A DNA stretch of 64,000 bases from Amycolatopsis tolypomycina (GTDB lineage: Bacteria > Actinomycetota > Actinomycetes > Mycobacteriales > Pseudonocardiaceae), in contig NZ_FNSO01000004.1 in assembly GCF_900105945.1 (NCBI RefSeq), forward strand, positions 6,328,001-6,392,000, in the 5' to 3' direction. Position numbers and translations under genes: made by a program. Shown piece after piece: positions 6,201-17,926 of this stretch (position 1 is the first letter of the stretch; each line of letters begins with the position of its first letter). The notes below the pieces were generated by a model. It was not told the origin of the DNA, did no database searches, and was given only the letters and a program-made list of their open reading frames with translations.

Positions 6201-6746
6201 TTGGGCGCCAAGGACCTGGTGACCGTGACCGGGCTGGCGTTGCTCGACTCGCTCAACATCTCGCTGATCCTCGGCACGGTCCACCTGATGCTGAGCAACA
6301 AGCGCCCGATACCCAAGGTCCTCGTCTTCGCCGGCGTGTTCTACGCCGTTTACGTGGCGGCCGGGGTGATCCAGCTGGGCGTCGGCGTCCTGTTGTTCCT
6401 CTACGGCATCTTCGCGAAGACCGAACGCCGGGAAATCCCGGTGGCGACGAGTTATCCCGCCACCGTTGCCCTCGCCTGCACCGTGGCCGCGGTGGAGGTC
6501 GTGACCGCGCTCCCGTACCTCGCCGCGATCTCCGTCGTCAGCCAGAGCGGGCTCGGCTTTCCCGCCCGCGTACTGGTTCTCCTCGGCTACAACCTCCGCC
6601 GAGAAACGGAAAACGAAGAACGACCGGAAGGGCTGTTGTGCATCGTGGCGGGCTTCTACATCACCGGTGACGCGCTGACCCAGCTCGAGTTCTTCGGTCT
6701 CGTGGAGCTCACCGACGAGCAGCGGAGACAGATCCACGGTTACTGA
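6201..6746 (+). CDS. GAP-like integral membrane protein
   Basis: A 181-residue membrane protein. The frame extends far upstream, but a TTG at 6201 preceded by GGGGGA at good spacing starts the protein just before its first membrane helix (LVTVTGLALLDSLNISLILG), so TTG is chosen. Further hydrophobic segments lie at about 37-70 and 87-112, with a shorter one near 150. The LLDSLN motif in helix 1 followed by a short RPIPKVLVF loop resembles the GAP/Sap family of actinobacterial membrane proteins, some of which are linked to export of surface lipids. This copy is slightly short for that family and ends in a hydrophilic tail. Function is inferred from weak similarity only. Confidence 0.7.
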   Translation: MGAKDLVTVTGLALLDSLNISLILGTVHLMLSNKRPIPKVLVFAGVFYAVYVAAGVIQLGVGVLLFLYGIFAKTERREIPVATSYPATVALACTVAAVEVVTALPYLAAISVVSQSGLGFPARVLVLLGYNLRRETENEERPEGLLCIVAGFYITGDALTQLEFFGLVELTDEQRRQIHGY

Positions 6747-6770: not shown

Positions 6771-7232
6771 TCACCACCAGGACGAACAGCGCACCGTCGG
6801 ATCGGGGTACACCGAGCCGCAGACGCGGAACTGGTAGCTGGGGGCCGTCGTCATTGCCGGTGTTGTCGCCGAGGCGCCGGTGCGGTTGTTGGGGAACGGG
6901 CCGCATTGGAGCCACGGTGACACCGGGCCGCCCGCCCAGTCCATCCAGAAGCGGTCGCTGCCTGCCGGGGACGTCTTGCCCGCGAGGTGTGCCCAGCCGC
7001 GCTGCTTTCCGTCGACCGTTGCGTAGTACAGCGTGAAGTACACCGGGTTCGTCTCCGCGTTGACCACGAAGCCGGTGGCGTACATGCCCGTCGAACTGTC
7101 CGGCATGTCGCGGAACCCGTTGGTGCCGCCGGTGCACTGGCCCGCCGTCGCACTGGCGACCCCCGCCGGTCCGGCGACCACCGCGCCGAGGGCGAGGGAC
7201 ACCACGGCGGCCGCGGTGAAGAGCTTCCTCAT
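6771..7232 (-). CDS. Small secreted protein, last gene of the secreted operon
   Basis: A 153-residue exported protein. ATG at 7232 follows a purine-rich GGAAAGGAAAG site, and residues 1-28 are a clear signal peptide ending ASA. The mature part is rich in Trp, Tyr, Gly and Thr and has four cysteines (near 33, 110, 137 and 149), suggesting a disulfide-bonded beta fold. It begins 17 bases after the stop of the giant golvesin-type gene and lies in the same direction, so the two are probably co-transcribed. I do not recognise a family, and it does not share the DVHG/IGLRW signature of the small proteins at the other end of the operon. No function is proposed beyond an extracellular role. Confidence 0.82.
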   Translation of the reverse strand: MRKLFTAAAVVSLALGAVVAGPAGVASATAGQCTGGTNGFRDMPDSSTGMYATGFVVNAETNPVYFTLYYATVDGKQRGWAHLAGKTSPAGSDRFWMDWAGGPVSPWLQCGPFPNNRTGASATTPAMTTAPSYQFRVCGSVYPDPTVRCSSWW

Positions 7233-7249
7233 TTTCTTTCCTTTCCGGA

Positions 7250-10200
7250 TCAGCCGTAGTCGCGGTGCGGGACGGTGCCGTCGGAGCAGAACACCATGCC
7301 GGACGGATTCGTGTCCGCCGGATCCGCCAGTGCCATTCCCCACGGGTTGCCTTCCTGGTCCCCGCGCGGTGGCTGCTCCCCCTGCTGCTGCCGGTTGCAG
7401 AACCCCCATTGGGTCTGCCGCGGCGGCAGCGCCGTGAAGTTGCCGTAGTTGCCGCTCACCACCGGATCGGCCGACGTGCGGGCCGACCCGTCCAGGTTCA
7501 TCGCCTGGCCGTCGCGGTAGAGGTACTGGCTCGGCATGAAACTGTTCAACGCCACCGGTGTCGACGCGTTCACCTGGCGCAGCGACAGGTCCGCGCAGGA
7601 GGCGAAGTGCAGCTCCTGGTGGATCGGCGACGCGTGCGCGAACGGCGAACCCAGCGCCGGGTCCGGGTCGAAGAACAGGTTGTACGCGTCCAGCGCCGTC
7701 TGGGCGACCCCGTGCGGGATGTTCTTCAGGTCGCGGCCGGCCTTCACCTGGTTCGCCCACCGCGCCACCTGGGACGTCAGGTAGTCGCTGGCGAGCGCGG
7801 TCCGCAGCGCGATCGCCCCGCCGCCGGCGCCGTGCGCGACGACGCAGTCGACCGTCCCGCCCGCCGCACCCGGCAGCTGGACCAGCTGCGGAGCCGCGCC
7901 GCCGAATCGGTAGGCACGGGCGTTGAGGACGCCGTGCTCGTTGCCGTTGACGTGCGTCACCCGGTGGTTGTGCTCGTTCGCGTCCACCAGGTCGAACTGC
8001 AGGTCCGGTGGCGCGATGCCGTAGTCGCGGTGCAGCGCCCCGAACAGGGCCACCAGCCACGGCGGGAGGTGGGTGTTCGCCGTGCGGTGCCGGTAGTCGA
8101 CGTCCTCCGAGCCCGGCACGATCCGCCCGTCGTCCCCGCGCAGGAACGACACCGTCGCCTGGGTGCGGATCTTGTACCCGAGGTCGTCGTTCAGGAACCA
8201 GTCGGGCAGGTAGGCCGACGACGGCCGCTTGTCGACGGAGTTGGCGAAGCCCAGCCACTGCGGGATGCTCTTGCCCCGCGGGTGGTTCACCGGGTCGGTG
8301 CCCGCCTGGACCACGTTGTCGCGCCACGCGGTGAACACGTCCTTGGTCGCGGCCCGGACGCACTGGTCGTTCGCCACCTCGCCGCAGACCGGCTTGGCGG
8401 CGACCTGACCGGTCAGGTCCATCGCCCAGTCGTAGATCGTCTGGCGGCTCTGCAGCTTGCCCGCGATCCAGGTGGCCGGAATCAGGGTGTCCAGGTTCTG
8501 GTTCTCGTCGAAGTAGGCGACGTTGTCGACCTTGTCCTCGAGGTAGGTGCCCTGCACCGGGACCAGGGCGAGCGCGTCCCACGCCACCGTGCCGACATCG
8601 GCGGCGGTGTCGGACTTGGTGATGTTGGCGAGCTCCACAGTGGACCCCGGGCCGAGCACGTGCACGCCGAGCGACTTCCAGTGGTTGAAGTGCTCGTGCT
8701 GGTTGACCACCCGCTCGGCGACGGTCCCGTTGGCGTTCTTGATCTTGTACACCGCACTGCCCGCCGACGCGCCCGCCGTCGGGATGTGCGCGCGGACCAT
8801 GTAGGTGCCGTTCGCGCCGAGGTTCGGCCGCCAGGTGCCGGTCACGCGCTTGGCGGGTTCGCTCGCCAGCGCGTTGCCCGCGAACCAGGTGTGCGCCCCC
8901 AGCCCGCTCGCCACCTGGTGGAAGTTGATCTCGGAGATCGGCATGCCCGCCGCCGTCTTGCCGAAGTCCAGGGTGAACGAGCCGCCGGACGTCCAGTCGA
9001 CGCCGCCGCAGAAGATGTTCTGGTTCGGGGAGCTCAGCTCGTCGACGATGATCGTGCCGGTGGGCAACCCCTTCGCGCAGGCCGGTGGCCACGGGTTGTC
9101 GCCCGGGGGCTCGGGATCACCCGCGCGGCTGACGTAGGCCGAGGCCGCGCACACCTTGGCGCAGTCGGCCTGCATGGTCACCGGGGCGTGCCACCAGCAG
9201 TGGAACGCGAGGTCGCCGTCGGTGTAGCCGCAGCGCTTGGCGGTGTCCGGGTTGCAGTTGTTGCTGCTGGTGCACAGCAGCTTGCGATCGGGGTAGGTGA
9301 TCGTGCCGCTGCTGGTGTTGCCGGGGCTCTTCAGCGCCGGGCGGTAGGCGTCGACGCCCTGGTAGTCCTTGATCGGCGTCTCGGTCCAGCCGAGCACCCG
9401 CTCCTGGTAGGGCCACTCCCACGGCCGTGCCGCGTCGGCGTAGCTCTGCCGCAGGAAGACCGTGCGGCCTTCGCGGTAGGAGTCGTTGTTGGGGTTGTTC
9501 GTCCAGCCGAGGCCCCAGTTCCCCGCCCGGTCGGTGCACGCCGGGCTCGGCGTGCAGCCCGAGGTGTTGCCGGTGGCCGGGCTCGGCTGGATCCCGGAGT
9601 TGTACGCCCAGAGCGCGAAGTACCAGTTCTCCACCAGCTCCGGGTTGCTGTTGTTCATCCGGATGCCCATGTCCTGGAGCGTGTTCCACTTCTCGGCCAG
9701 GATCTGCATGCCCGCCGAGATGTTCTCGGCGTAGTCGACGGCGATCTTCGCCTTGCCGTTCGGCGAGATGCTGGTGTCGGCCGCGCTCATGCCGGTGGTC
9801 ACCTGGGCGATGCCGTAGCCGCAGTCGGCGTTGTCGTAGTCGATGGTGTCGAGCCCGCCCTTGGCGCCGTAGTAGTCGCCGATCAGCGGGTTGCCGCCCG
9901 ACCCGGGCAGCGCGCGCCAGGTGGCGTGCTTGTAGGCGCTTTCCTGCGCCAGCACGCCGTTCATCACCACCGGCGGGACCCGGCCGCCGCCCGGTTTCAG
10001 CGCGGGCACGGTGAAGTCGGAGCTGGGGCTGTACGCCGGCAACCCGGTCTTCCGGTAGTCGGCGGGCCGCGACGGGAGGGAGTTGAGCGTCGCGAGGTCC
10101 ACGGCCCAGGCCGCCTGCCGGGCGATCGGGCCGTAGACCTGGCGGTTCGGCGCGTTGCGGGGGACCGCGCACTTGGGCGTGGTGAAGTTGCCTTCCGCGG

Positions 10201-11383
10201 TCCGCGCGCCCGACGCGGTCACCCGCTGGGCCGGCACCCCGGTGCCCACCTTGGCGCCGGGGGTGAGCTGGACCCCGGTGCGGAGGGTCTCCCCGGTGCC
10301 GAGCCAGACCAGCGCGGCGTCGCTGCCGGCCTCGTCGTGGTGGCCGCGCTTGTCCGACACCGCCCGCGGCAGGTCGGTGAGCGCCAGTTTCCCTTCGGCG
10401 CTGACGTCGCGGACCCGCATCTCGGTACCGGGCGCCGGTTCGGCTTTCGGCTTGGCGGCGGCGAGGCCGGTGCGCGCCGCCTGCCCGGTGCCGAGCAGCT
10501 TGGCGGCACCGGAGACCGGCGCGAGGAGCTGCGCGGCCGGGTCCACGGCGGCGGCCTGCTCGGTGAGCCTGCGGTCACCGAGGTCCAGCGCGCGCAGCAC
10601 GGTGCGCTCCCCCGCCCGCTCGGCGAACTCGAGCAGCCTGCCCCGCACGCCGGCGAGCTCGACGCCGCCACTGGCTTCGTGGACGACTTCGGCGCGCTCG
10701 GGCCGGGCCGCCGTGACACGCACGATCTGGTTGCCGCGGCGCAGGAACGTCTGCCCGCCGTCGAGCACCGGGTCGACGAACTGGCCGTCGAGCCGGGCGA
10801 CCTGGCTGGTCTTCGCGCTCGCCGGGTCGATCGCGTACACCCCGGTCTTCGTGCTTTCGGTGTCGCTGTAGGACAGCACGGCCGCCCGGCCGTCGCGACC
10901 GCAGCGCAGGCTGGCGCTGTTGATCGCGGCACCGGTGGCGACCGGTTTGACCGCGCCGTCGGCCAGCGCGACCGAGTAGACCAGGCCGCCGCCGGCGAGG
11001 TACTTCGGCTTGTTCGCCGCGCGGGCGGTGATGAGGCTCACCACGACGTGCGTGCGGTCGCTGGTCAGGCAGTACTGGCCGAGCCACGTGTCGTCCGCGT
11101 CGAACGGCTTGACGGTGGCCAGCGGTTGAAAGGCGTACGACGCGTTTTCCCGGCCGGCGAAGAGGTGGAAGCCTTCTTCGTCCCCGGTTCCGGTGACCAG
11201 CACGTCGTCACCGTCCGGCCAGGACGGCTCCAGCTTGCTCAGCCGGTCCAGCACGTGCGACTGGCTGTCGCGCGGCTCCGCCGGCTTCTCGTGCCCGGGG
11301 CCGTGCGCCTCGGCCGCGGCAGGCGCGACCACCATCGCCGCCGCGGCCAGCGCCGCCACGGCGGCCGCCTTCGCTCTTCTCAC
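7250..11383 (-). CDS. 1377-aa secreted protein: propeller, transglycosylase-like and golvesin domains
   Basis: A GTG at 11383 after AAAGG starts a signal peptide (to about residue 27, AAAEAHG). Residues 40-340 look like a beta-propeller with repeated Trp/Gly strands. Around 470-600 is a lysozyme/SLT-like segment: catalytic-type Glu in GVLAQES, then GYGIAQV, a helix with AGMQILAEKWN, and WAYNSG. Residues 800-950 match the golvesin C-terminal-like domain (HTWFAGN, GTWRPNLGANGTYMV, WDALALVPV). The last 400 residues contain many Cys, Trp and His and are unassigned. SLT domains cleave peptidoglycan glycan strands. Golvesin domains occur on secreted enzymes and wall proteins, with poorly known function. 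Small secreted genes lie 28 bases before it and 17 bases after it in the same direction, so it is the core of a secreted operon. Plus-strand frames of similar length are shadows. Confidence 0.9.
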   Translation of the reverse strand: MRRAKAAAVAALAAAAMVVAPAAAEAHGPGHEKPAEPRDSQSHVLDRLSKLEPSWPDGDDVLVTGTGDEEGFHLFAGRENASYAFQPLATVKPFDADDTWLGQYCLTSDRTHVVVSLITARAANKPKYLAGGGLVYSVALADGAVKPVATGAAINSASLRCGRDGRAAVLSYSDTESTKTGVYAIDPASAKTSQVARLDGQFVDPVLDGGQTFLRRGNQIVRVTAARPERAEVVHEASGGVELAGVRGRLLEFAERAGERTVLRALDLGDRRLTEQAAAVDPAAQLLAPVSGAAKLLGTGQAARTGLAAAKPKAEPAPGTEMRVRDVSAEGKLALTDLPRAVSDKRGHHDEAGSDAALVWLGTGETLRTGVQLTPGAKVGTGVPAQRVTASGARTAEGNFTTPKCAVPRNAPNRQVYGPIARQAAWAVDLATLNSLPSRPADYRKTGLPAYSPSSDFTVPALKPGGGRVPPVVMNGVLAQESAYKHATWRALPGSGGNPLIGDYYGAKGGLDTIDYDNADCGYGIAQVTTGMSAADTSISPNGKAKIAVDYAENISAGMQILAEKWNTLQDMGIRMNNSNPELVENWYFALWAYNSGIQPSPATGNTSGCTPSPACTDRAGNWGLGWTNNPNNDSYREGRTVFLRQSYADAARPWEWPYQERVLGWTETPIKDYQGVDAYRPALKSPGNTSSGTITYPDRKLLCTSSNNCNPDTAKRCGYTDGDLAFHCWWHAPVTMQADCAKVCAASAYVSRAGDPEPPGDNPWPPACAKGLPTGTIIVDELSSPNQNIFCGGVDWTSGGSFTLDFGKTAAGMPISEINFHQVASGLGAHTWFAGNALASEPAKRVTGTWRPNLGANGTYMVRAHIPTAGASAGSAVYKIKNANGTVAERVVNQHEHFNHWKSLGVHVLGPGSTVELANITKSDTAADVGTVAWDALALVPVQGTYLEDKVDNVAYFDENQNLDTLIPATWIAGKLQSRQTIYDWAMDLTGQVAAKPVCGEVANDQCVRAATKDVFTAWRDNVVQAGTDPVNHPRGKSIPQWLGFANSVDKRPSSAYLPDWFLNDDLGYKIRTQATVSFLRGDDGRIVPGSEDVDYRHRTANTHLPPWLVALFGALHRDYGIAPPDLQFDLVDANEHNHRVTHVNGNEHGVLNARAYRFGGAAPQLVQLPGAAGGTVDCVVAHGAGGGAIALRTALASDYLTSQVARWANQVKAGRDLKNIPHGVAQTALDAYNLFFDPDPALGSPFAHASPIHQELHFASCADLSLRQVNASTPVALNSFMPSQYLYRDGQAMNLDGSARTSADPVVSGNYGNFTALPPRQTQWGFCNRQQQGEQPPRGDQEGNPWGMALADPADTNPSGMVFCSDGTVPHRDYG

Positions 11384-11411
11384 GCTCGCTTGCCTTTCAC
11401 GCCGCCCCGCC

Positions 11412-11762
11412 CTACCAGCGAAGACCGATGTTGGACGGGCCCTGCGGGCCCTCCACCTTGGCCGTGTAGTGACCGGTGGGGTAGTTGACGCAGGTGACCG
11501 ACCGGGGCGGGTCCTCGGCGCGGAACCGGTCGGTGCAGACGTAGCCGCGGGGGCCGCTCACCGTCCACCGGGCCTCACCGCTGCCGTGCACGTCGAAGTC
11601 GACGTGGAAGGTGGTCGTCCCCTGGATGTCCGCTCCGAGCTCGCAGGAGGGGGTGGAGCAGTCGGCGCTCTTGCCGCCCGCGCTCGCCACCTGCGGGAAC
11701 ACCACACAGGCGGTCACCGCGACGACGGCCGGGAGTGCGGCACGGAGGAATTTCGCGCGCAT
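11412..11762 (-). CDS. Small secreted DVHG/IGLRW-family protein A
   Basis: A 116-residue protein with a signal peptide (1-28, ending ASA). The mature part has an early Cys pair (DCSTPSCEL), a central DFDVHGSGEARW strand, a second Cys pair and the C-terminus GPQGPSNIGLRW. It is paralogous to the proteins at 11767-12141 and 12493-12846. Conserved Gly/Trp strands and paired Cys suggest a small beta-sandwich held by disulfides. The gene starts 5 bases after protein B stops and ends 28 bases before the giant golvesin-type gene, so it is in the same operon. I do not recognise the family. A wall- or host-directed effector and a structural wall protein are both possible. Confidence 0.85.
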   Translation of the reverse strand: MRAKFLRAALPAVVAVTACVVFPQVASAGGKSADCSTPSCELGADIQGTTTFHVDFDVHGSGEARWTVSGPRGYVCTDRFRAEDPPRSVTCVNYPTGHYTAKVEGPQGPSNIGLRW

Positions 11763-11766
11763 GTCC

Positions 11767-12141
11767 TCAGCTCCCCGTCGGGTTGTCGAGCCAGCGCAGG
11801 CCGATCGTCACCGGGCCCGCCGGCCCGGTCACCCGCGCGTGGTAGCGGCCCTTCGGCGACCAGCTGCGCAGCCAGGAGCCCGGCCCGGCGGCCGCGTCGA
11901 AGTCCTGCACGTGGTACCAGTTCTCCTCCAGGCTCCACAGTTCCCAGCGCCCGGTGCCGGTCCCGTGCACGTCGGCGTCGATGGACAGGCCACCGCCCTG
12001 GTAGCCGGACACGTAGAGGTCGCAGACCGTGTCCTGGCAGGTGGTGGAGAACGCCGCGGCCGACGCGGCCTGCGGGGTGAGGGCGGCGGCGGACGCGGCG
12101 AGCACGCCGACGACCACGCCCCGGGTCAACATCTTGGGCAT
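11767..12141 (-). CDS. Small secreted DVHG/IGLRW-family protein B
   Basis: A 124-residue protein. The open frame continues upstream, but ATG at 12141 follows AAGGGGA at ideal spacing and starts a signal peptide (MPKMLTRGVV..., cleaved near AASA). The mature part repeats the family signature: a Cys pair (TTCQDTVC), DADVHGTGTGRW, GPGSW, GRYHARVTGPAGP and IGLRW. It adds an eight-residue tail after IGLRW that its paralogs lack, and it has lost the second Cys pair. It lies 22 bases after the stop of the upstream gene and 4 bases before protein A, which supports co-transcription. Function unknown. Confidence 0.83.
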   Translation of the reverse strand: MPKMLTRGVVVGVLAASAAALTPQAASAAAFSTTCQDTVCDLYVSGYQGGGLSIDADVHGTGTGRWELWSLEENWYHVQDFDAAAGPGSWLRSWSPKGRYHARVTGPAGPVTIGLRWLDNPTGS

Positions 12142-12163
12142 TCGGTTCCCCTTGGTGAGTTGG

Positions 12164-12496
12164 TCAGGCGAGGAAGTACGCGCAGTTGACGATGGCGTCG
12201 GTGGCGCTGCTGGCCGGCTGGTACCGGGCACCCGGCGGGTAGTCCTGGATGCGGTACAGGTTCCCGTTTTCCCATTCGGCGGTGCACATCGCGACGTCGG
12301 TGGCGTTGGTGAACTGCGTCAGCCCCTGCTGGTGCACGTCGGCGGGCAGGTCCCGGTACCACTGGTAGTCGAAGGTGTAGGCGGCACTGCGGCTGCTCAC
12401 GATGTACTTCCCGGTGTCCGCGGCGGCCGTGCCGGGCAGGCAGGCCAGCGCGGCACCGACGGCGACGGCGACGGCCGCGCAGTGCACGGCCTTCAC
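12164..12496 (-). CDS. Small secreted protein, translationally coupled
   Basis: A 110-residue exported protein. GTG at 12496 overlaps the stop codon of the preceding gene by 4 bases (GTGA), so translation is probably coupled. Residues 1-26 form a signal peptide (VAVAVGAALACLPGTAAA). The mature part is Tyr/Trp-rich (FDYQWYRDLPADVHQQG) with two cysteines (MCTAEW and NCAYF) that could form one disulfide, and it ends FLA. It is not a member of the DVHG/IGLRW family that surrounds it. A longer frame running upstream into 13750 is not credible as protein. Family and function are not recognised. Confidence 0.8.
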   Translation of the reverse strand: MKAVHCAAVAVAVGAALACLPGTAAADTGKYIVSSRSAAYTFDYQWYRDLPADVHQQGLTQFTNATDVAMCTAEWENGNLYRIQDYPPGARYQPASSATDAIVNCAYFLA

Positions 12497-12846
12497 CAGC
12501 GGAGACCGATGTTCGACGGCCCCTGCGGCCCTTCGACGCCCGCCGAGTACCGGCCGGCGGGTGCGTTGAAGCACAGCCAGGATCCCGGCCCCCACACGGC
12601 TTCGAAGGTGCCGCTGCAGTAGTAGCCGTTCGGTCCCCACACCTGCCAGCGCGACTTCCCGTCGCCGTGCACGTCGGCGTCGACCGAGAGCGTTCCGCCG
12701 GGGAACCCGTCGACCTGCACGACGGAGCAGTAGCTCTGCGGGCAGTCTGCGTGCTTCGGTTCGGCCATCGCCGCGGGGGAGGTCAGCACGAGCGCGGTGC
12801 CGGCGACCGTGGTCGCGATCACACCGCGCAGCACGGACTTGCGCAT
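12493..12846 (-). CDS. Small secreted DVHG/IGLRW-family protein C, first gene of the operon
   Basis: A 117-residue protein. ATG at 12846 is preceded by GAGGAGAA, a near-ideal ribosome site. Signal peptide 1-28 (ending AMA). Mature signature: DCPQSYC Cys pair, VDADVHGDGKSRWQVWGPNGYYC, AVWGPGSWLC, AGRYSAGVEGPQGP and IGLRW. It is closest to protein A at the C-terminus and to protein B at DADVHG and GPGSW, so it shows the full family pattern. It is the promoter-proximal gene of the leftward operon. A divergent DUF2690 gene starts 163 bases away. Function unknown. Confidence 0.85.
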   Translation of the reverse strand: MRKSVLRGVIATTVAGTALVLTSPAAMAEPKHADCPQSYCSVVQVDGFPGGTLSVDADVHGDGKSRWQVWGPNGYYCSGTFEAVWGPGSWLCFNAPAGRYSAGVEGPQGPSNIGLRW

Positions 12847-12910
12847 GGAATTCTCCTCGAAGGATGTCGGTGACGCGGCGATCTTGAAGGAGCGGCTGAC
12901 CGAAAGGCAA

Positions 12911-12934
12911 CGGTTTCGGCCCTGCCTGAAACCG
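12911..12934. promoter_or_regulatory. Inverted repeat in the divergent promoter of the secreted operon
   Basis: CGGTTTC (12911-12917) and GAAACCG (12928-12934) form perfect 7-bp arms around a 10-base spacer. The repeat lies in the 163-base region between the leftward six-gene secreted operon and the rightward DUF2690 gene. Position and symmetry suggest an operator controlling both; no cognate regulator is identified. Confidence 0.4.
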
Positions 12935-13009
12935 CTTGCCCGTGCTCACCCGCGGCGGCACGCTGGTGCGCCGAAACCCGGATCCGGAAAGAAAAGCGAG
13001 CAGACGCGC

Positions 13010-13504
13010 ATGAAGACGAAACCGTTCCTCGGCAAGGCCGCGGCCGTGCTGGCCCTGCTCCTCACCGCGCTGGTGCTGCAGCCCGCGCAGGCCGGCGCCG
13101 CGACGGCCGCGCCGCGGACGCTCGCCGCCGCCTGCTCGCACGACGGCTGCCGGGGACTGGATCCGCAGTCCACCGGCTGCTCGGCCAGCGCCTACACCTA
13201 CGACTCCTTCACGGCGCACTGGGGCGACCTCGTCGAAATCCGGCACAGCACGGACTGCGGGGCCTACTGGGCCCGCGTCACCGCGAACTCGGACAACCGG
13301 CCGTACCGCACGGCGGCCCAGTCCGGGCGGGACAACGGCACCGTCGTCTACGAACAGGTCGTCAGCGGGAACTGCTGGCCCAACGGAACGGGCACGCCCT
13401 GCGCCGCGGTGTGGACGCCGATGATCGCCGGCCCGCTGATCCGTGTCTGCCACAACGCCGACGTGCTGGAGTGCACCCGCTGGTACGTCGTCAGCATGGG
13501 CTGA
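13010..13504 (+). CDS. Secreted DUF2690 protein
   Basis: A 164-residue secreted protein. ATG at 13010 starts a signal peptide (MKTKPFLGKAAAVLALLLTA, cleaved near QAGAATA). The mature part opens with the DUF2690 signature: Cys-rich CSHDGCRGLDPQSTGC, then alternating strands and more Cys near the end (NCWPNGTGTPC, CHNADVLEC). DUF2690 proteins are small exported actinobacterial proteins of unknown function, often with an LPXTG-less mature domain alone, as here. The gene is divergent from the six-gene secreted operon, shares its short promoter region and is followed by a strong terminator, so it is monocistronic. Confidence 0.88.
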   Translation: MKTKPFLGKAAAVLALLLTALVLQPAQAGAATAAPRTLAAACSHDGCRGLDPQSTGCSASAYTYDSFTAHWGDLVEIRHSTDCGAYWARVTANSDNRPYRTAAQSGRDNGTVVYEQVVSGNCWPNGTGTPCAAVWTPMIAGPLIRVCHNADVLECTRWYVVSMG

Positions 13505-13671: not shown

Positions 13672-14703
13672 ATGCTGCGCATCCATTTCGAGGCCGACGA
13701 CCTCGCCCGCACGCGGATTCTGGAAGAGCCGGATCCGCTGTGGGAGACACTGCTGAGCCTGCACCAGCTGCAGGGTGGGGCCGGACAGGCCGTGTTCGGG
13801 GACTGGCGCTCGTCGGTCCGGTCCCGGCTGGACCGGTCCGCGGGGATGCTCTTCGCGCTGGCGCCGCCGCGCGGCTACTCCGTGGACTTCCTCACCCCGG
13901 TGGTCGGGACGGACGGGCTCGACAGCGGGATCGACGGTGTGCTGAGCACCCCGCGCTCGGTGTTCCGGGCCGATCTCACCGCGCTCGCCGCCGAGCGGCG
14001 GCCACCGGCCTGGGCTCCCGCGCTCGCGGAGGGACGCCTGGACGTGCTGCGCAAGCTCGGCCACTCGATCCGGCAGTACTTCTCGGTCGCGCTCGCCTCG
14101 TCCTGGTCGGCGATCACCGGCCTGGTGCGCGCCGACCGCCTGCAGCGCGGCCACACGATGCTGAGCCACGGCGTCGAAGGGATGCTCGCGACGCTCCACC
14201 CCACCGTCCGGTGGCGGTCGCCGGTGCTCGAGGTGGCCTACCCGGTCGACCAGGAACTGCACCTCGGCGGCCGCGGGCTGCTGCTGGTGCCGTCGATGTT
14301 CTGCTGGCAGTCGCCGGTGACGCTGCTGGACCCCGGGCGCCAGCCGGTGCTGGTGTACCCGGTCGGCCGGCGGCCCGGCTGGTTCGGCGGCGCGCCGAAC
14401 CGGTCGGCGGAGCAGCTGCTGGGCCGGACCCGCGCCGCGGTGCTGGAGGCCATCTGCGAGCTGCCCGCGCCGACGACGTCCGAGCTCGCGACCGAGCTGG
14501 GCGTCTCCCCGGCGAGCGCCAGCCAGCACGCGACCGTGCTGCGCGAGTCGGGTCTCATCACGACCGACCGGACCGGCGGTGCGGCCCGGCACCGGCCGAC
14601 CGGGTTCGGCTCGGCCCTGCTCACGATCGGGGCGGGGGAACCGGTGCCGCCGGCGCGCACGGCTGCGGCGCCCTGGTCGCCGCGAGCAGCGTACGCACTC
14701 TGA
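13672..14703 (+). CDS. ArsR-like winged-helix regulator with large sensor domain
   Basis: A 343-residue cytoplasmic regulator. ATG at 13672 follows a run of Gs (GGGGGGGAC) at good spacing; the longer upstream frame is rejected because it overlaps the DUF2690 coding end. Residues 1-250 are an uncharacterised sensor-like region of the DUF5937 kind. Residues 265-320 form a winged helix: VLEAICELPAPTTSELATELGVSPASASQHATVLRESGLI, shown here only by its key residues SELA, SASASQH and LRESGLI with a basic wing (GGAARHRPTG). ArsR-type proteins usually repress nearby or autologous genes. Its last 83 bases overlap the 3' end of the convergent SARP gene. Confidence 0.82.
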   Translation: MLRIHFEADDLARTRILEEPDPLWETLLSLHQLQGGAGQAVFGDWRSSVRSRLDRSAGMLFALAPPRGYSVDFLTPVVGTDGLDSGIDGVLSTPRSVFRADLTALAAERRPPAWAPALAEGRLDVLRKLGHSIRQYFSVALASSWSAITGLVRADRLQRGHTMLSHGVEGMLATLHPTVRWRSPVLEVAYPVDQELHLGGRGLLLVPSMFCWQSPVTLLDPGRQPVLVYPVGRRPGWFGGAPNRSAEQLLGRTRAAVLEAICELPAPTTSELATELGVSPASASQHATVLRESGLITTDRTGGAARHRPTGFGSALLTIGAGEPVPPARTAAAPWSPRAAYAL

Positions 14704-17700
14704 CCATGACGGTGCCGGCGTCGGTGTCGCGCACGAGCGCCTCGGCCTCGTGCGCGCACGCGCGGGCGGCTTCGGGTCCGGCGCGCGCCAGCCGGATCCG
14801 GCCGAGGACGACCCAGGCGTCGGCCTCGCCGAGCCGGTACCCGGCCCGGCGCAGCTCCTCGATCGCCTGCCCGGCGTACGCCTCGGCCGCGGCGCTGTCG
14901 CCGTGGTCGAGGGCCGCTGCGGCCAGGCGGAGCCGGGCCAGCTCGGCCAGCGGGCGGAAGCCGCCCCGCTCGGCGAGGCGCAGGGCGTCCGCGGCCTGGG
15001 CGAGCGCCTGCCCGGGTTCGACGACCGAGAGCCCGATCGCGGCGATGATCTCGCCGCGGCGGTACCCGATCGCCCCGGCCTGCTGCCGGGTCTCGAGGTA
15101 GCAGCCCCGCGCCGAATCGGTTTCCCCGGCGAGCCGGTGGACGTGGCCCAGCTCGCTCAGCGCGTCGGTCTCGAACCGCCGGTTGCCCGCCTCCCGCGCG
15201 ACCGCGATCGCCTGGACCGCGCAGGCACGAGCCGCCGCGTCGCCGGTGATCCGGTGCACCGCGGCCAGCCGGACCAGCGCGTCCGCCTCGTCGTCACGCG
15301 AACCCAGCTCGCGCAGGCAGGCGAGGGCTTCGGTGAGCACCTCCCGCGCCCGGCGGAGCTGCCCGGTCGCGCGGTAGCCGTAGCCGAGGTTGCACTGGGC
15401 GATGGCGGCCGCGTGCGCGGAGCCGACGCTGCGGCAGATCGCGAACGCCCGCTCGTTGTGCCGGATCCCGTCGGCGAGGTCCCCGTGGTCGAGCAGGGCC
15501 GCGCCCAGGTTGATCAGGCTGTTGGCCACCTGCGCCTCGGTGCCGCGCTCCTCGGCCGCGGCGAGGGCCGCGGTGAAGTGCTCGATCGCCGCTTCGAGCT
15601 GCCCGAGGTCGAGGTGCACGGCGCCGAACGCCTGCAGCACCGAGTCGGCGCCGTCGAGCGCGCCCGCGGCGAGGTAGCACTCGCGGGCCGCGCCCAGCTC
15701 GGCGAGCGCCTGCCGGTAGTTCCCGCGGCCCCAGGCCAGCACCCCGAGGCTGTGCCGCATGGCGCCGGCCGCCTGCCGGTCCCCGGCCTGCTCCGCGGCG
15801 GCGAGGCCGGCGGTGGCGGCCGCCTCCCACTCGGCGTCGAGCCGGTGGGAATGGAAGAACCCGCGCAGGACGTCGGCGAGCCGCCAGGCGACCGCCGCGG
15901 GCCCGTGCCCGGCGGCCCAGCGGATGGCGGCCAGCAGGTTCGGGTGCTCCGCGAGCAGCCATTGCCGCGCTTCGCCCGGCGCGAACGGTGTGCCGGCGGT
16001 CTCGGCGGAGCGGTCGTCCGGCAGCCGCCGGAAGTCCGGGTACAACGCCTGCGCGGCACGGTCCGCGGTCTGCAGGTAGTGCTCGAACAGCCGGCCCAGC
16101 GCGTCGTCCCGCGTCTGCTCCTTCAGGTCCTCCGCCGCCCGCCCCGCGGCGTACGCCCGCAGCAGGTCGTGCATCCCGAACCGGTCGGCGCCGCGCGGCT
16201 GCACGAGGTGGCTCGCGACCAGCTCACGCAGCAGGTCGGCGGCGCCGGCGACGTCGGTGCCGGCCAGCGCCGCGGCACCGGCGACGCTGATCTCGGCCCC
16301 GGGCACGGAGCCGAGCAGGCAGAAGAACTCCCCGGCCGCGTCCGACACCCCGTCGTAGGAGAAGTCGAGGGTGCGCCGCAGGCCCAGCCGCTCGTCGCCG
16401 GCGACCTTCAGCTTGGCCAGCAGGTCGCCGCCGGTCAGCTCCGCGAAGTAGCCGGCCAGGGGCTGGTCGGGCCAGTGCAGCAGGTTCGCCGCGACGATCC
16501 GCAGGGCCAGCGGCAGGCCGGCGCACAGCGTCGCCAGCTGCCGGGCCGTGTCCTCCTCGGCCGCGACACGCTCCGGGCCGAGGACGTCGGCCAGCAGCGC
16601 GACCGAGTCGTCGGCGGACAGCTCCGGCAGCGGCAGGACGCGGGTGTCGACGGTGGCGGTCAGCCCGGCCAGCCGGTCGCGGCTGGTGATCAGCACCGCC
16701 GAGCCCGGGCTGCCGGGCAGCAGCGCCCGCACCTGCTCGGGCGTGGCGACGTTGTCCAGGACGACCAGCACCCGGCGGTCGGCGAGGATCGAGCGGTAGA
16801 GCGCCGCCGCGTCCGCCTGCTCGGTCGGCACCTGGCCGGGCCGGACGCCGAGGGCGTGCAGGAACCCGGTCAGCACCTGCAGCGCGGGCAGGGCGGGCGC
16901 CGGCGCGTAGCCCTGCAGGTCGGCGAACAGCTGCCCGTCCGGGAAGTGCGGCGCGGCCCGGTGCGCCCACCGCACGGCCAGCGTCGTCTTCCCGACCCCG
17001 GCCGGCCCGGTCAGCACGACCGCGGCCGGGCGGGCCCCCGCCGCGCCGGCCAGTTCGTCCAAAGTGGAGAGCAGGGCGGCGCGGCCCACGACGGTGGCCA
17101 CGTTCGACGGAAGCTGCCGCGGCCGGACCGCGGCGTCCCGGACCGGCTCCGGCGGCGCCTCGATGGCCGGGTCGGCGGTGAGGATCGCGTGCTGCATCCG
17201 GCGCAGCGCGGACCCGGGCTCGACGCCCAGCTCGTCGGCGAGCACCTGCCGGGCCCGCTGGTAGGCCGCCAGCGCCTCGTCGGTCCGGCCGCCGCGGTGC
17301 AGGGCCAGCATGAGCAGTTCCCACGGCCGTTCCCGCAGCGGGTACTGCCCGGTCAGCGCGCGCAGCTCGGCGGTCGCGACGGCGTGGCAGCCCAGGTCGA
17401 GCCAGGCGTGCGCCCGGTGCTCGGTGGCGCGCACGCGGGTTTCCTCGAGCCGCTGGACGTCGGGGTGCAGCGCCTCCGGCAGCTCCAGCCCGCTCAGCAC
17501 CGGGCCGCGCCACAGGGCGAGGGCGGCGCTCAGGTGCTCCATCGCGGCGGCGGGGGCGCCGGCGGCCAGCTCGTCGGCGCCGCGGCCGGCGAGCTCGGTG
17601 AACCGGCCGAGGTCGGACTCGCCTTCGTCCACGCGGAGCCGGTAGCCGCCCGGTCCGGTCTGCAGGCGCTCGGCCCCGGCGACGTCCGGGGTGGCCAGCA

Positions 17701-17926
17701 CCCGCCGCAGTTCGGTGACGTAGGACTGGAGGTTCGCGACGGCCGAGGCGGGTGGCTGCTCGCCCCACAGGTGGTCGACGAGGGTCGCGGTCGGCACCAC
17801 GGAGTTCGCCCGGAACACCAGCAACGCCAGCAGCAGCCGCGGCTTGCGCCGGGTGATGGGCAGCACCGTCCCCGCGCCGTCGTACACCTCCAGCGGTCCG
17901 AGGACGCCGAACCTGTAGCCGCTCAC
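14621..17926 (-). CDS. AfsR/SARP-type regulator (DNA-binding, BTAD, NB-ARC and TPR domains)
   Basis: A 1101-residue transcription activator. GTG at 17926 follows GGGAGGA. Residues 1-95 form the OmpR-like DNA-binding domain (RKPRLLLALLVFRANSVV, LVDHLWG). The bacterial transcriptional activation domain runs to about 250 (ERPWELLMLALHRGGRTDEALAAY). The NB-ARC/STAND NTPase has Walker A GPAGVGKTT near 308 and Walker B VLVVLDN near 390. Tetratricopeptide repeats fill about 700-1080 (LGRLFEHYLQTA onward, repeated ALAAAEERG, AFAICRSVG, DALSELGHVHR). AfsR-family proteins bind promoters as activators of secondary metabolism or morphological genes, gated by nucleotide. No biosynthetic cluster is adjacent, so the target is unknown. 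Its 3' end overlaps the convergent ArsR-like gene. Confidence 0.95.
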   Translation of the reverse strand: MSGYRFGVLGPLEVYDGAGTVLPITRRKPRLLLALLVFRANSVVPTATLVDHLWGEQPPASAVANLQSYVTELRRVLATPDVAGAERLQTGPGGYRLRVDEGESDLGRFTELAGRGADELAAGAPAAAMEHLSAALALWRGPVLSGLELPEALHPDVQRLEETRVRATEHRAHAWLDLGCHAVATAELRALTGQYPLRERPWELLMLALHRGGRTDEALAAYQRARQVLADELGVEPGSALRRMQHAILTADPAIEAPPEPVRDAAVRPRQLPSNVATVVGRAALLSTLDELAGAAGARPAAVVLTGPAGVGKTTLAVRWAHRAAPHFPDGQLFADLQGYAPAPALPALQVLTGFLHALGVRPGQVPTEQADAAALYRSILADRRVLVVLDNVATPEQVRALLPGSPGSAVLITSRDRLAGLTATVDTRVLPLPELSADDSVALLADVLGPERVAAEEDTARQLATLCAGLPLALRIVAANLLHWPDQPLAGYFAELTGGDLLAKLKVAGDERLGLRRTLDFSYDGVSDAAGEFFCLLGSVPGAEISVAGAAALAGTDVAGAADLLRELVASHLVQPRGADRFGMHDLLRAYAAGRAAEDLKEQTRDDALGRLFEHYLQTADRAAQALYPDFRRLPDDRSAETAGTPFAPGEARQWLLAEHPNLLAAIRWAAGHGPAAVAWRLADVLRGFFHSHRLDAEWEAAATAGLAAAEQAGDRQAAGAMRHSLGVLAWGRGNYRQALAELGAARECYLAAGALDGADSVLQAFGAVHLDLGQLEAAIEHFTAALAAAEERGTEAQVANSLINLGAALLDHGDLADGIRHNERAFAICRSVGSAHAAAIAQCNLGYGYRATGQLRRAREVLTEALACLRELGSRDDEADALVRLAAVHRITGDAAARACAVQAIAVAREAGNRRFETDALSELGHVHRLAGETDSARGCYLETRQQAGAIGYRRGEIIAAIGLSVVEPGQALAQAADALRLAERGGFRPLAELARLRLAAAALDHGDSAAAEAYAGQAIEELRRAGYRLGEADAWVVLGRIRLARAGPEAARACAHEAEALVRDTDAGTVMVRVRTLLAATRAPQPCAPAAPVPPPRS

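What the first reader, a model, noticed from the sequence alone, without database searches (positions are those of the whole stretch)
6771..13504. Six-gene secreted operon with a transglycosylase/golvesin megaprotein and three small paralogs
Six consecutive leftward genes (12493-12846, 12164-12496, 11767-12141, 11412-11762, 7250-11383, 6771-7232) are all exported, with spacings of -4, 22, 4, 28 and 17 bases, so they are one transcription unit. None has a cytoplasmic function. A divergent DUF2690 secreted protein shares the promoter region, which carries a perfect inverted repeat. The core protein joins a beta-propeller, a lysozyme-like segment and a golvesin domain, an architecture I have not met. 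Together this looks like a dedicated secreted apparatus acting on the wall or on other cells. I know of no published system with this layout.
Basis: partly seen in the sequence, partly recalled or inferred. Interest (0 to 1): 0.78.

Follow-up and report, generated by a model that had tools for sequence, protein, structure and literature searches.

The report
Exported trunk protein with swappable tip
The operon's giant secreted protein belongs to a large family of actinobacterial proteins, for which we found no description in print, that join one constant probably wall-cutting trunk to exchangeable C-terminal tips, some toxin-like; some of the small secreted genes around it are regular companions of that trunk, others a separate module joined to it.

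Summary
The six leftward genes are as described (spacings -4, 22, 4, 28, 17; exported-type N-termini; three paralogues). The order divergent DUF2690 - P1-P2-P3-P4 - megaprotein - P6 recurs in two Crossiella genomes. It is a composite rather than one apparatus. (1) Megaprotein residues 1 to ~946 (propeller-like region, lytic-transglycosylase-like domain, Cys-rich part, golvesin domain) are a widespread trunk: 45 of 59 genus match rows end at residue 940-950, and other trunk proteins continue into RHS, GDSL/SGNH, DUF2690, DUF3990 or this protein's own 423-residue tip. (2) Relatives with this tip mostly have a small multi-TM membrane gene directly downstream (25 of 33 loci; 1 of 29 control trunk frames), a toxin/immunity-like layout that this operon lacks. 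(3) P6 lies beside trunk genes in 10 of 26 loci; DUF2690 beside this tip type in 5 of 7 hits. (4) P1, P3 and P4 are predicted jelly-roll proteins usually found without the megaprotein. Best reading: an exported effector that works like a polymorphic toxin; antagonism is inferred. NocE-named proteins share the trunk, and deleting nocE slows growth of Streptomyces clavuligerus, so a nutritional role stays open.

The parts
12493..12846 (-). P1: 117 aa exported jelly-roll protein, first of three paralogues
   Evidence: (predicted 8 strands, pLDDT above 90 over residues 31-117 by block means)
12164..12496 (-). P2: 110 aa exported protein of unknown family, overlaps P1 by 4 nt; in order with P1 in Crossiella and G027
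   Evidence: no Pfam or NCBIfam match
11767..12141 (-). P3: 124 aa exported jelly-roll-family paralogue
11412..11762 (-). P4: 116 aa exported jelly-roll-family paralogue
7250..11383 (-). Megaprotein, 1377 aa: exported trunk (residues 1 to ~946) plus C-terminal tip domain (CTD, residues ~955-1377, window about 8521-7253)
6771..7232 (-). P6: 153 aa exported protein of a family often found beside trunk genes
13010..13504 (+). Divergent exported DUF2690 protein, 164 aa; DUF2690 also adjoins or is fused to other trunk proteins
   Evidence: (P0051)
12847..13009 (.). 163-nt divergent intergenic region; inverted-repeat arm at 12909-12918, second arm (13017-13026) inside DUF2690; not conserved in Crossiella

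Best explanation
The megaprotein is one member of a family of Sec-exported modular proteins of Actinobacteria. Shown by comparison: a constant trunk (propeller-like region, lytic-transglycosylase-like domain with conserved catalytic motif, Cys-rich part, golvesin domain) ends sharply at residue ~946, and different proteins continue into different tips; the tip here is a family of its own. Shown: relatives with this tip mostly carry a small multi-TM membrane gene immediately downstream, while RHS- and GDSL-type trunks mostly carry other partners there; P6 and DUF2690 are recurrent neighbours of trunk genes; P1-P4 are an independently occurring module. Inferred: after export the SLT domain opens peptidoglycan locally and the golvesin domain (carbohydrate-binding-like) holds the protein at the wall, presenting the tip, which acts on a neighbouring cell's envelope or the cell's own surface; P6 and DUF2690 protect against or assist the trunk or tip, and P1-P4 add binding proteins. 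In short it works like a polymorphic toxin, with a trunk type for which we found no description.
For: Sharp swap point: 45 of 59 match rows in 80 genus genomes end at query residue 940-950, 3 run to the end, 11 are other partial pieces. Tip census of the 120 listed homologues (of 137): 37 with this tip, 46 RHS, 15 GDSL/SGNH, 22 others. Toxin-like tips: RHS/DUF6531, DUF3990 in P0093 (33.5 bits, cut-off 32.2) with an overlapping sub-threshold PARP match, NucA/NucB in P0120 just below cut-off (22.6 against 23.8). SLT motif residues 120 of 120. Downstream ORF with at least 2 hydrophobic segments within -20 to +200 nt: 26 of 35 frames (25 of 33 loci) for this tip, 1 of 9 RHS, 0 of 20 other trunks. 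P6 beside trunk genes in 10 of 26 loci in 390 genomes. DUF2690 beside this tip type for 5 of 7 hits, again in Kribbella (L061), fused to a trunk in P0051.
Against: No toxic activity is shown for this tip; no catalytic motif is obvious and its only structural match is a protein of unknown function. This operon and its Crossiella orthologues lack the membrane gene; their next gene, P6, is exported. 8 of 33 tip loci lack it too, and many Streptomyces loci are related, so they are not 33 independent events. 16 of 26 P6 loci have no trunk gene counted nearby. NocE-named trunk proteins carry a hydrolase, and a nocE mutant grew worse without any competitor (PMC6856088).
Confidence: 0.5

Rival explanations
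1. Nutrient acquisition or self wall remodelling: the trunk anchors a hydrolytic or binding tip at the producer's own surface; the small proteins bind polymers.
For: NocE-named trunk relatives (P0112) have a GDSL tip. In S. clavuligerus nocE deletion reduced growth in three media, and the authors suggest extracellular nutrient acquisition (PMC6856088 section 14). Golvesin-type domains are grouped with carbohydrate-binding modules (passage in PMC9166713).
Against: 46 of 120 homologues carry RHS and one carries DUF3990, more like conflict proteins; partners downstream differ by tip type. S. clavuligerus NocE itself was not compared here.
Confidence: 0.27
2. A dedicated six-gene apparatus, all parts coevolved and working as one machine.
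For: Order and spacing are conserved in the window and two Crossiella genomes; locus tags 02475, 02490, 02495 in Amycolatopsis sp. NEAU-NG30 fit the same order.
Against: P1-P4 occur intact without the megaprotein (G027; P1-P3-P4 in G038), the small family in 44 of 390 genomes against 3 with adjacency, and distant megaproteins lack P1-P4.
Confidence: 0.1
3. Developmental surface proteins: wall opening and coat assembly during aerial growth or sporulation.
For: Exported, disulphide-rich, wall-cutting proteins of mycelial actinomycetes, near a SARP-type regulator (14621-17926).
Against: Patchy distribution: this tip in 18 of 390 family genomes is unlike core developmental genes; RHS and DUF3990 tips on the same trunk.
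Confidence: 0.08

Closest known systems
Sec-dependent polymorphic toxins with RHS repeats (Zhang et al. 2012, PMC3482391; passages seen)
   Same: Exported N-terminal part, exchangeable C-terminus, partner gene directly downstream in relatives; RHS proteins share this very trunk
   Different: No RHS repeats or known toxin domain in the window's protein, no recognisable immunity gene after it; 'transglycosylase' and 'SLT' do not occur in the held text of that paper (first 300,000 of 357,715 characters)
NocE of beta-lactam producers (PMC6856088; section 14 and passages read)
   Same: NocE-named homologue P0112 shares the trunk and golvesin domain (31% identity over 68% of the query) and is exported
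   Different: GDSL/SGNH tip instead of this tip
SLT lytic transglycosylases (PF01464)
   Same: Catalytic Glu and the G-x-x-Q and A-Y-N motifs
   Different: Score below Pfam cut-off for the window's protein; embedded in a large exported protein
Golvesin_C (PF25275)
   Same: Domain above cut-off
   Different: The papers found by name concern mainly Dictyostelium golvesin (listing)
BAS0735 (PDB 3c5p; DUF3238 by recall)
   Different: No sequence match, function unknown, Foldseek gave no significant match

Membership tests
Polymorphic toxin system | Constant exported N-terminal part with exchangeable C-terminal domains | tested here: met
Polymorphic toxin system | Cognate immunity-like gene directly downstream in this operon | tested here: not met
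   Next gene P6 is exported and not tip-specific; relatives with the same tip have a small membrane gene in 25 of 33 loci
Polymorphic toxin system | Recognised toxin domain at the C-terminus | tested here: not met
   No Pfam match for the tip at E up to 10 in the window's copy; nothing usable among solved sequences
Polymorphic toxin system | Toxicity neutralised by the partner | not testable with these tools
   needs expression
SLT lytic transglycosylase (PF01464) | Family score over cut-off | tested here: not met
   15.9 against 21.3 for the window's protein; the four trunk proteins scanned score 21.6-23.8, over the cut-off
SLT lytic transglycosylase (PF01464) | Catalytic Glu with GxxQ and AYN motifs (motifs by recall) | tested here: met
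   E481, G524, Q527, Y594, N595 120 of 120; A593 119 of 120
Golvesin_C (PF25275) | Score over cut-off | tested here: met
   43.4 against 31.6
NocE | C-terminal GDSL/SGNH hydrolase | tested here: not met
   only Golvesin_C and SLT at E up to 0.1
DUF2690 (PF10901), divergent gene | Score over cut-off | tested here: met
   38.7 against 23
DUF3238 fold (PDB 3c5p) for the tip | Shared fold | tested here: inconclusive
Jelly-roll / pre-peptidase-C-type domains for P1, P3, P4 | Shared fold | tested here: inconclusive

The most novel reading that the evidence does not exclude
An exported effector-delivery trunk of mycelial Gram-positive bacteria, for which we found no description: a lytic-transglycosylase/golvesin rod that opens peptidoglycan and presents exchangeable tips, with this 423-residue tip as a new membrane- or wall-acting effector class whose usual immunity protein is a tiny ~3-TM membrane protein, replaced in the Amycolatopsis-like/Crossiella lineage by secreted partners (P6, DUF2690, the P1-P4 jelly rolls).
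Probability: 0.33. Interest if true: 0.78.

Novelty: new variant of a known kind. Interest (0 to 1): 0.57.

Why it matters
If right, many large exported 'RHS', 'NocE' and 'golvesin-domain' proteins of actinomycetes fall under one scheme with one testable trunk activity, and tip and downstream-partner pairs become predictable from gene order. It would also give the nocE growth phenotype, so far unexplained, a biochemical starting point.

Tried and rejected
Unique architecture: rejected. Promoter inverted repeat as a conserved operator: not supported. A sigma-70-type promoter or terminator: no promoter-like site, and the two terminator-like sites are on the + strand and no more than chance. Small proteins as peptidase inhibitors I36 (a name given to P0126 and P0151): no Pfam support. 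A lysozyme-inhibitor role: PliG (4dzg) is Foldseek rank 8, E 2.6e-3, among many unrelated jelly rolls and not among the 50 VIA rows shown, so not claimed. Tip against viral structures and against PDB with Foldseek: nothing significant. DUF3238 in Actinobacteria: 0 of 149 genomes, but no control genome rang, so uninformative. Profile of the full protein against solved sequences: no match. Papers on a transglycosylase-SLT/RHS protein of Actinobacteria: none with all terms; other paper searches: (listings; passages of PMC3482391, PMC6856088, PMC9166713 and PMC12482188 were opened).

Limits: the trunk search over 390 genomes failed, so trunk positions outside the genus come from fetched stretches only. 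The gene caller is a home-made codon-usage script and missed some genes; one search repeated the key count without it, taking the ORF with most hydrophobic segments in both test and control frames. Rows dropped before counts: one truncated control frame, and loci L132 and L134 as duplicates of L065 and L044. A 54-bit trunk-profile match about 3 kb from P6 in L173 was not counted as a trunk gene.

Full report
What is there. Flanks: a convergent gene with a sub-threshold SfLAP match ends at 6746, and a BTAD/NB-ARC regulator lies at 14621-17926.

The order is real. Locus tags of homologues in Amycolatopsis sp. NEAU-NG30 (02475, 02490, 02495) fit the same order. For Streptosporangium, a 67% megaprotein (P0004) and a 47% P6 (P0162) list the same longest contig length, 737,430, which suggests but does not show linkage.

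The megaprotein is trunk plus tip. Within 80 genus genomes 23 have matches; of 59 match rows, 45 end at query residue 940-950, 3 run to the end and 11 are other partial pieces. Among the 120 listed homologues (137 found), 37 carry the window's tip, 46 RHS, 15 GDSL/SGNH, and 22 something else or nothing recognised. One of these is fused to DUF2690 (P0051), one to DUF3990 (P0093), one has a NucA/NucB match just below cut-off (P0120), and P0114 has a GDSL match over cut-off. The host's own three other trunk proteins have DUF6531, two of them with RHS repeats; for one of them the N-terminal part lies in a separate frame. E481, G524, Q527, Y594 and N595 are identical in 120 of 120, which fits an active lytic transglycosylase (motif by recall), although the window's own SLT score is below Pfam's cut-off.

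Partner genes differ by tip. Outside the window's own lineage, an ORF with at least two hydrophobic segments starts within -20 to +200 nt of the stop in 26 of 35 tip frames (25 of 33 loci, from Streptomyces, Nonomuraea, Solihabitans, Saccharomonospora, Spongiactinospora, Saccharothrix, Micromonospora, Phytohabitans, Kribbella, Amycolatopsis keratiniphila and others), against 1 of 9 RHS-type and 0 of 20 other trunk frames. The ORFs are mostly 80-130 aa, often with three segments; 16 of them align at low identity and have no consistent Pfam family. Small integral-membrane genes directly after an exported modular protein resemble toxin/immunity pairs (inference; CdiI with two TM helices is listed in PMC3482391, passage). 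The window's operon and its Crossiella orthologues lack this gene; their next gene is P6. Eight of the 33 loci lack it too (L039, where one segment passed the threshold, L041, L050, L058, L059, L064, L133, L136).

P6 and DUF2690 go with the trunk. P6 homologues at E up to 1e-8 occur at 26 loci in 23 of 390 genomes (27 rows, two of them halves of one locus). Ten lie beside a trunk gene: the three orthologous operons, plus G023, G024, G062, G006, two in G077, and G229. The other 16, examined in fetched stretches of mostly 15 kb (two cut by contig ends), have no trunk gene counted nearby. DUF2690 has 7 hits in 7 chosen genomes (five of them with a hit), 5 beside a gene with this tip; it is also upstream of the Kribbella gene (L061). 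G000, G185 and G187 are one orthologous case; the genomes were chosen mostly because they carry this tip.

Reading. Shown: a modular trunk with sharply bounded tips, tip-dependent neighbours, and a composite operon. Inferred: wall opening, surface anchoring, effector action and partner roles. The closest experimental fact is that the S. clavuligerus nocE mutant grows worse in three media and that NocE is predicted to be exported (PMC6856088 section 14); a NocE-named homologue here has the trunk (P0112), S. clavuligerus NocE itself was not compared. This keeps a nutritional or self-directed role alive.

Novelty. The 2012 polymorphic-toxin survey does not mention transglycosylase or SLT in its held text, and searches for golvesin, DUF2690, DUF3238 and SLT+RHS found no description of this protein type. 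The library holds open-licence papers only, so this is absence from those searches, not proof.

Noticed in passing
L048, L057, L067 (upstream), L050, L064 (downstream): A second trunk protein of 989-1131 aa lies directly beside the tip-bearing megaprotein, as tandem pairs.
   Followed up: no
L041, L043, L049, L050, L051, L055, L058, L064, upstream of the megaprotein: A recurrent exported or lipoprotein-like gene of about 270-340 aa, with a C-M-x-x-x-G-F-like stretch seen in several, precedes the megaprotein.
   Followed up: no
L138, L139, L140, L142, L144, L145, L146: GDSL-type trunk genes are followed within 4-25 nt (one overlaps) by a 130-155 aa one-TM or lipoprotein-like gene, a different partner class.
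   Followed up: partly
L126 and L127; window 14621-17926: A close homologue (1064-1132 bits) of the window's BTAD/NB-ARC regulator lies just downstream of a lone small jelly-roll gene in two other genus genomes, hinting at a regulator link.
   Followed up: no
G038:C127 about 30.4-32.4 kb (L137): A small-family gene lies near a short trunk fragment, possibly the remnant of a lost operon.
   Followed up: no
L153, L154, L155 (own genome): Three further trunk proteins with DUF6531, two with RHS repeats; in L155 the N-terminal part is in a separate frame.
   Followed up: partly
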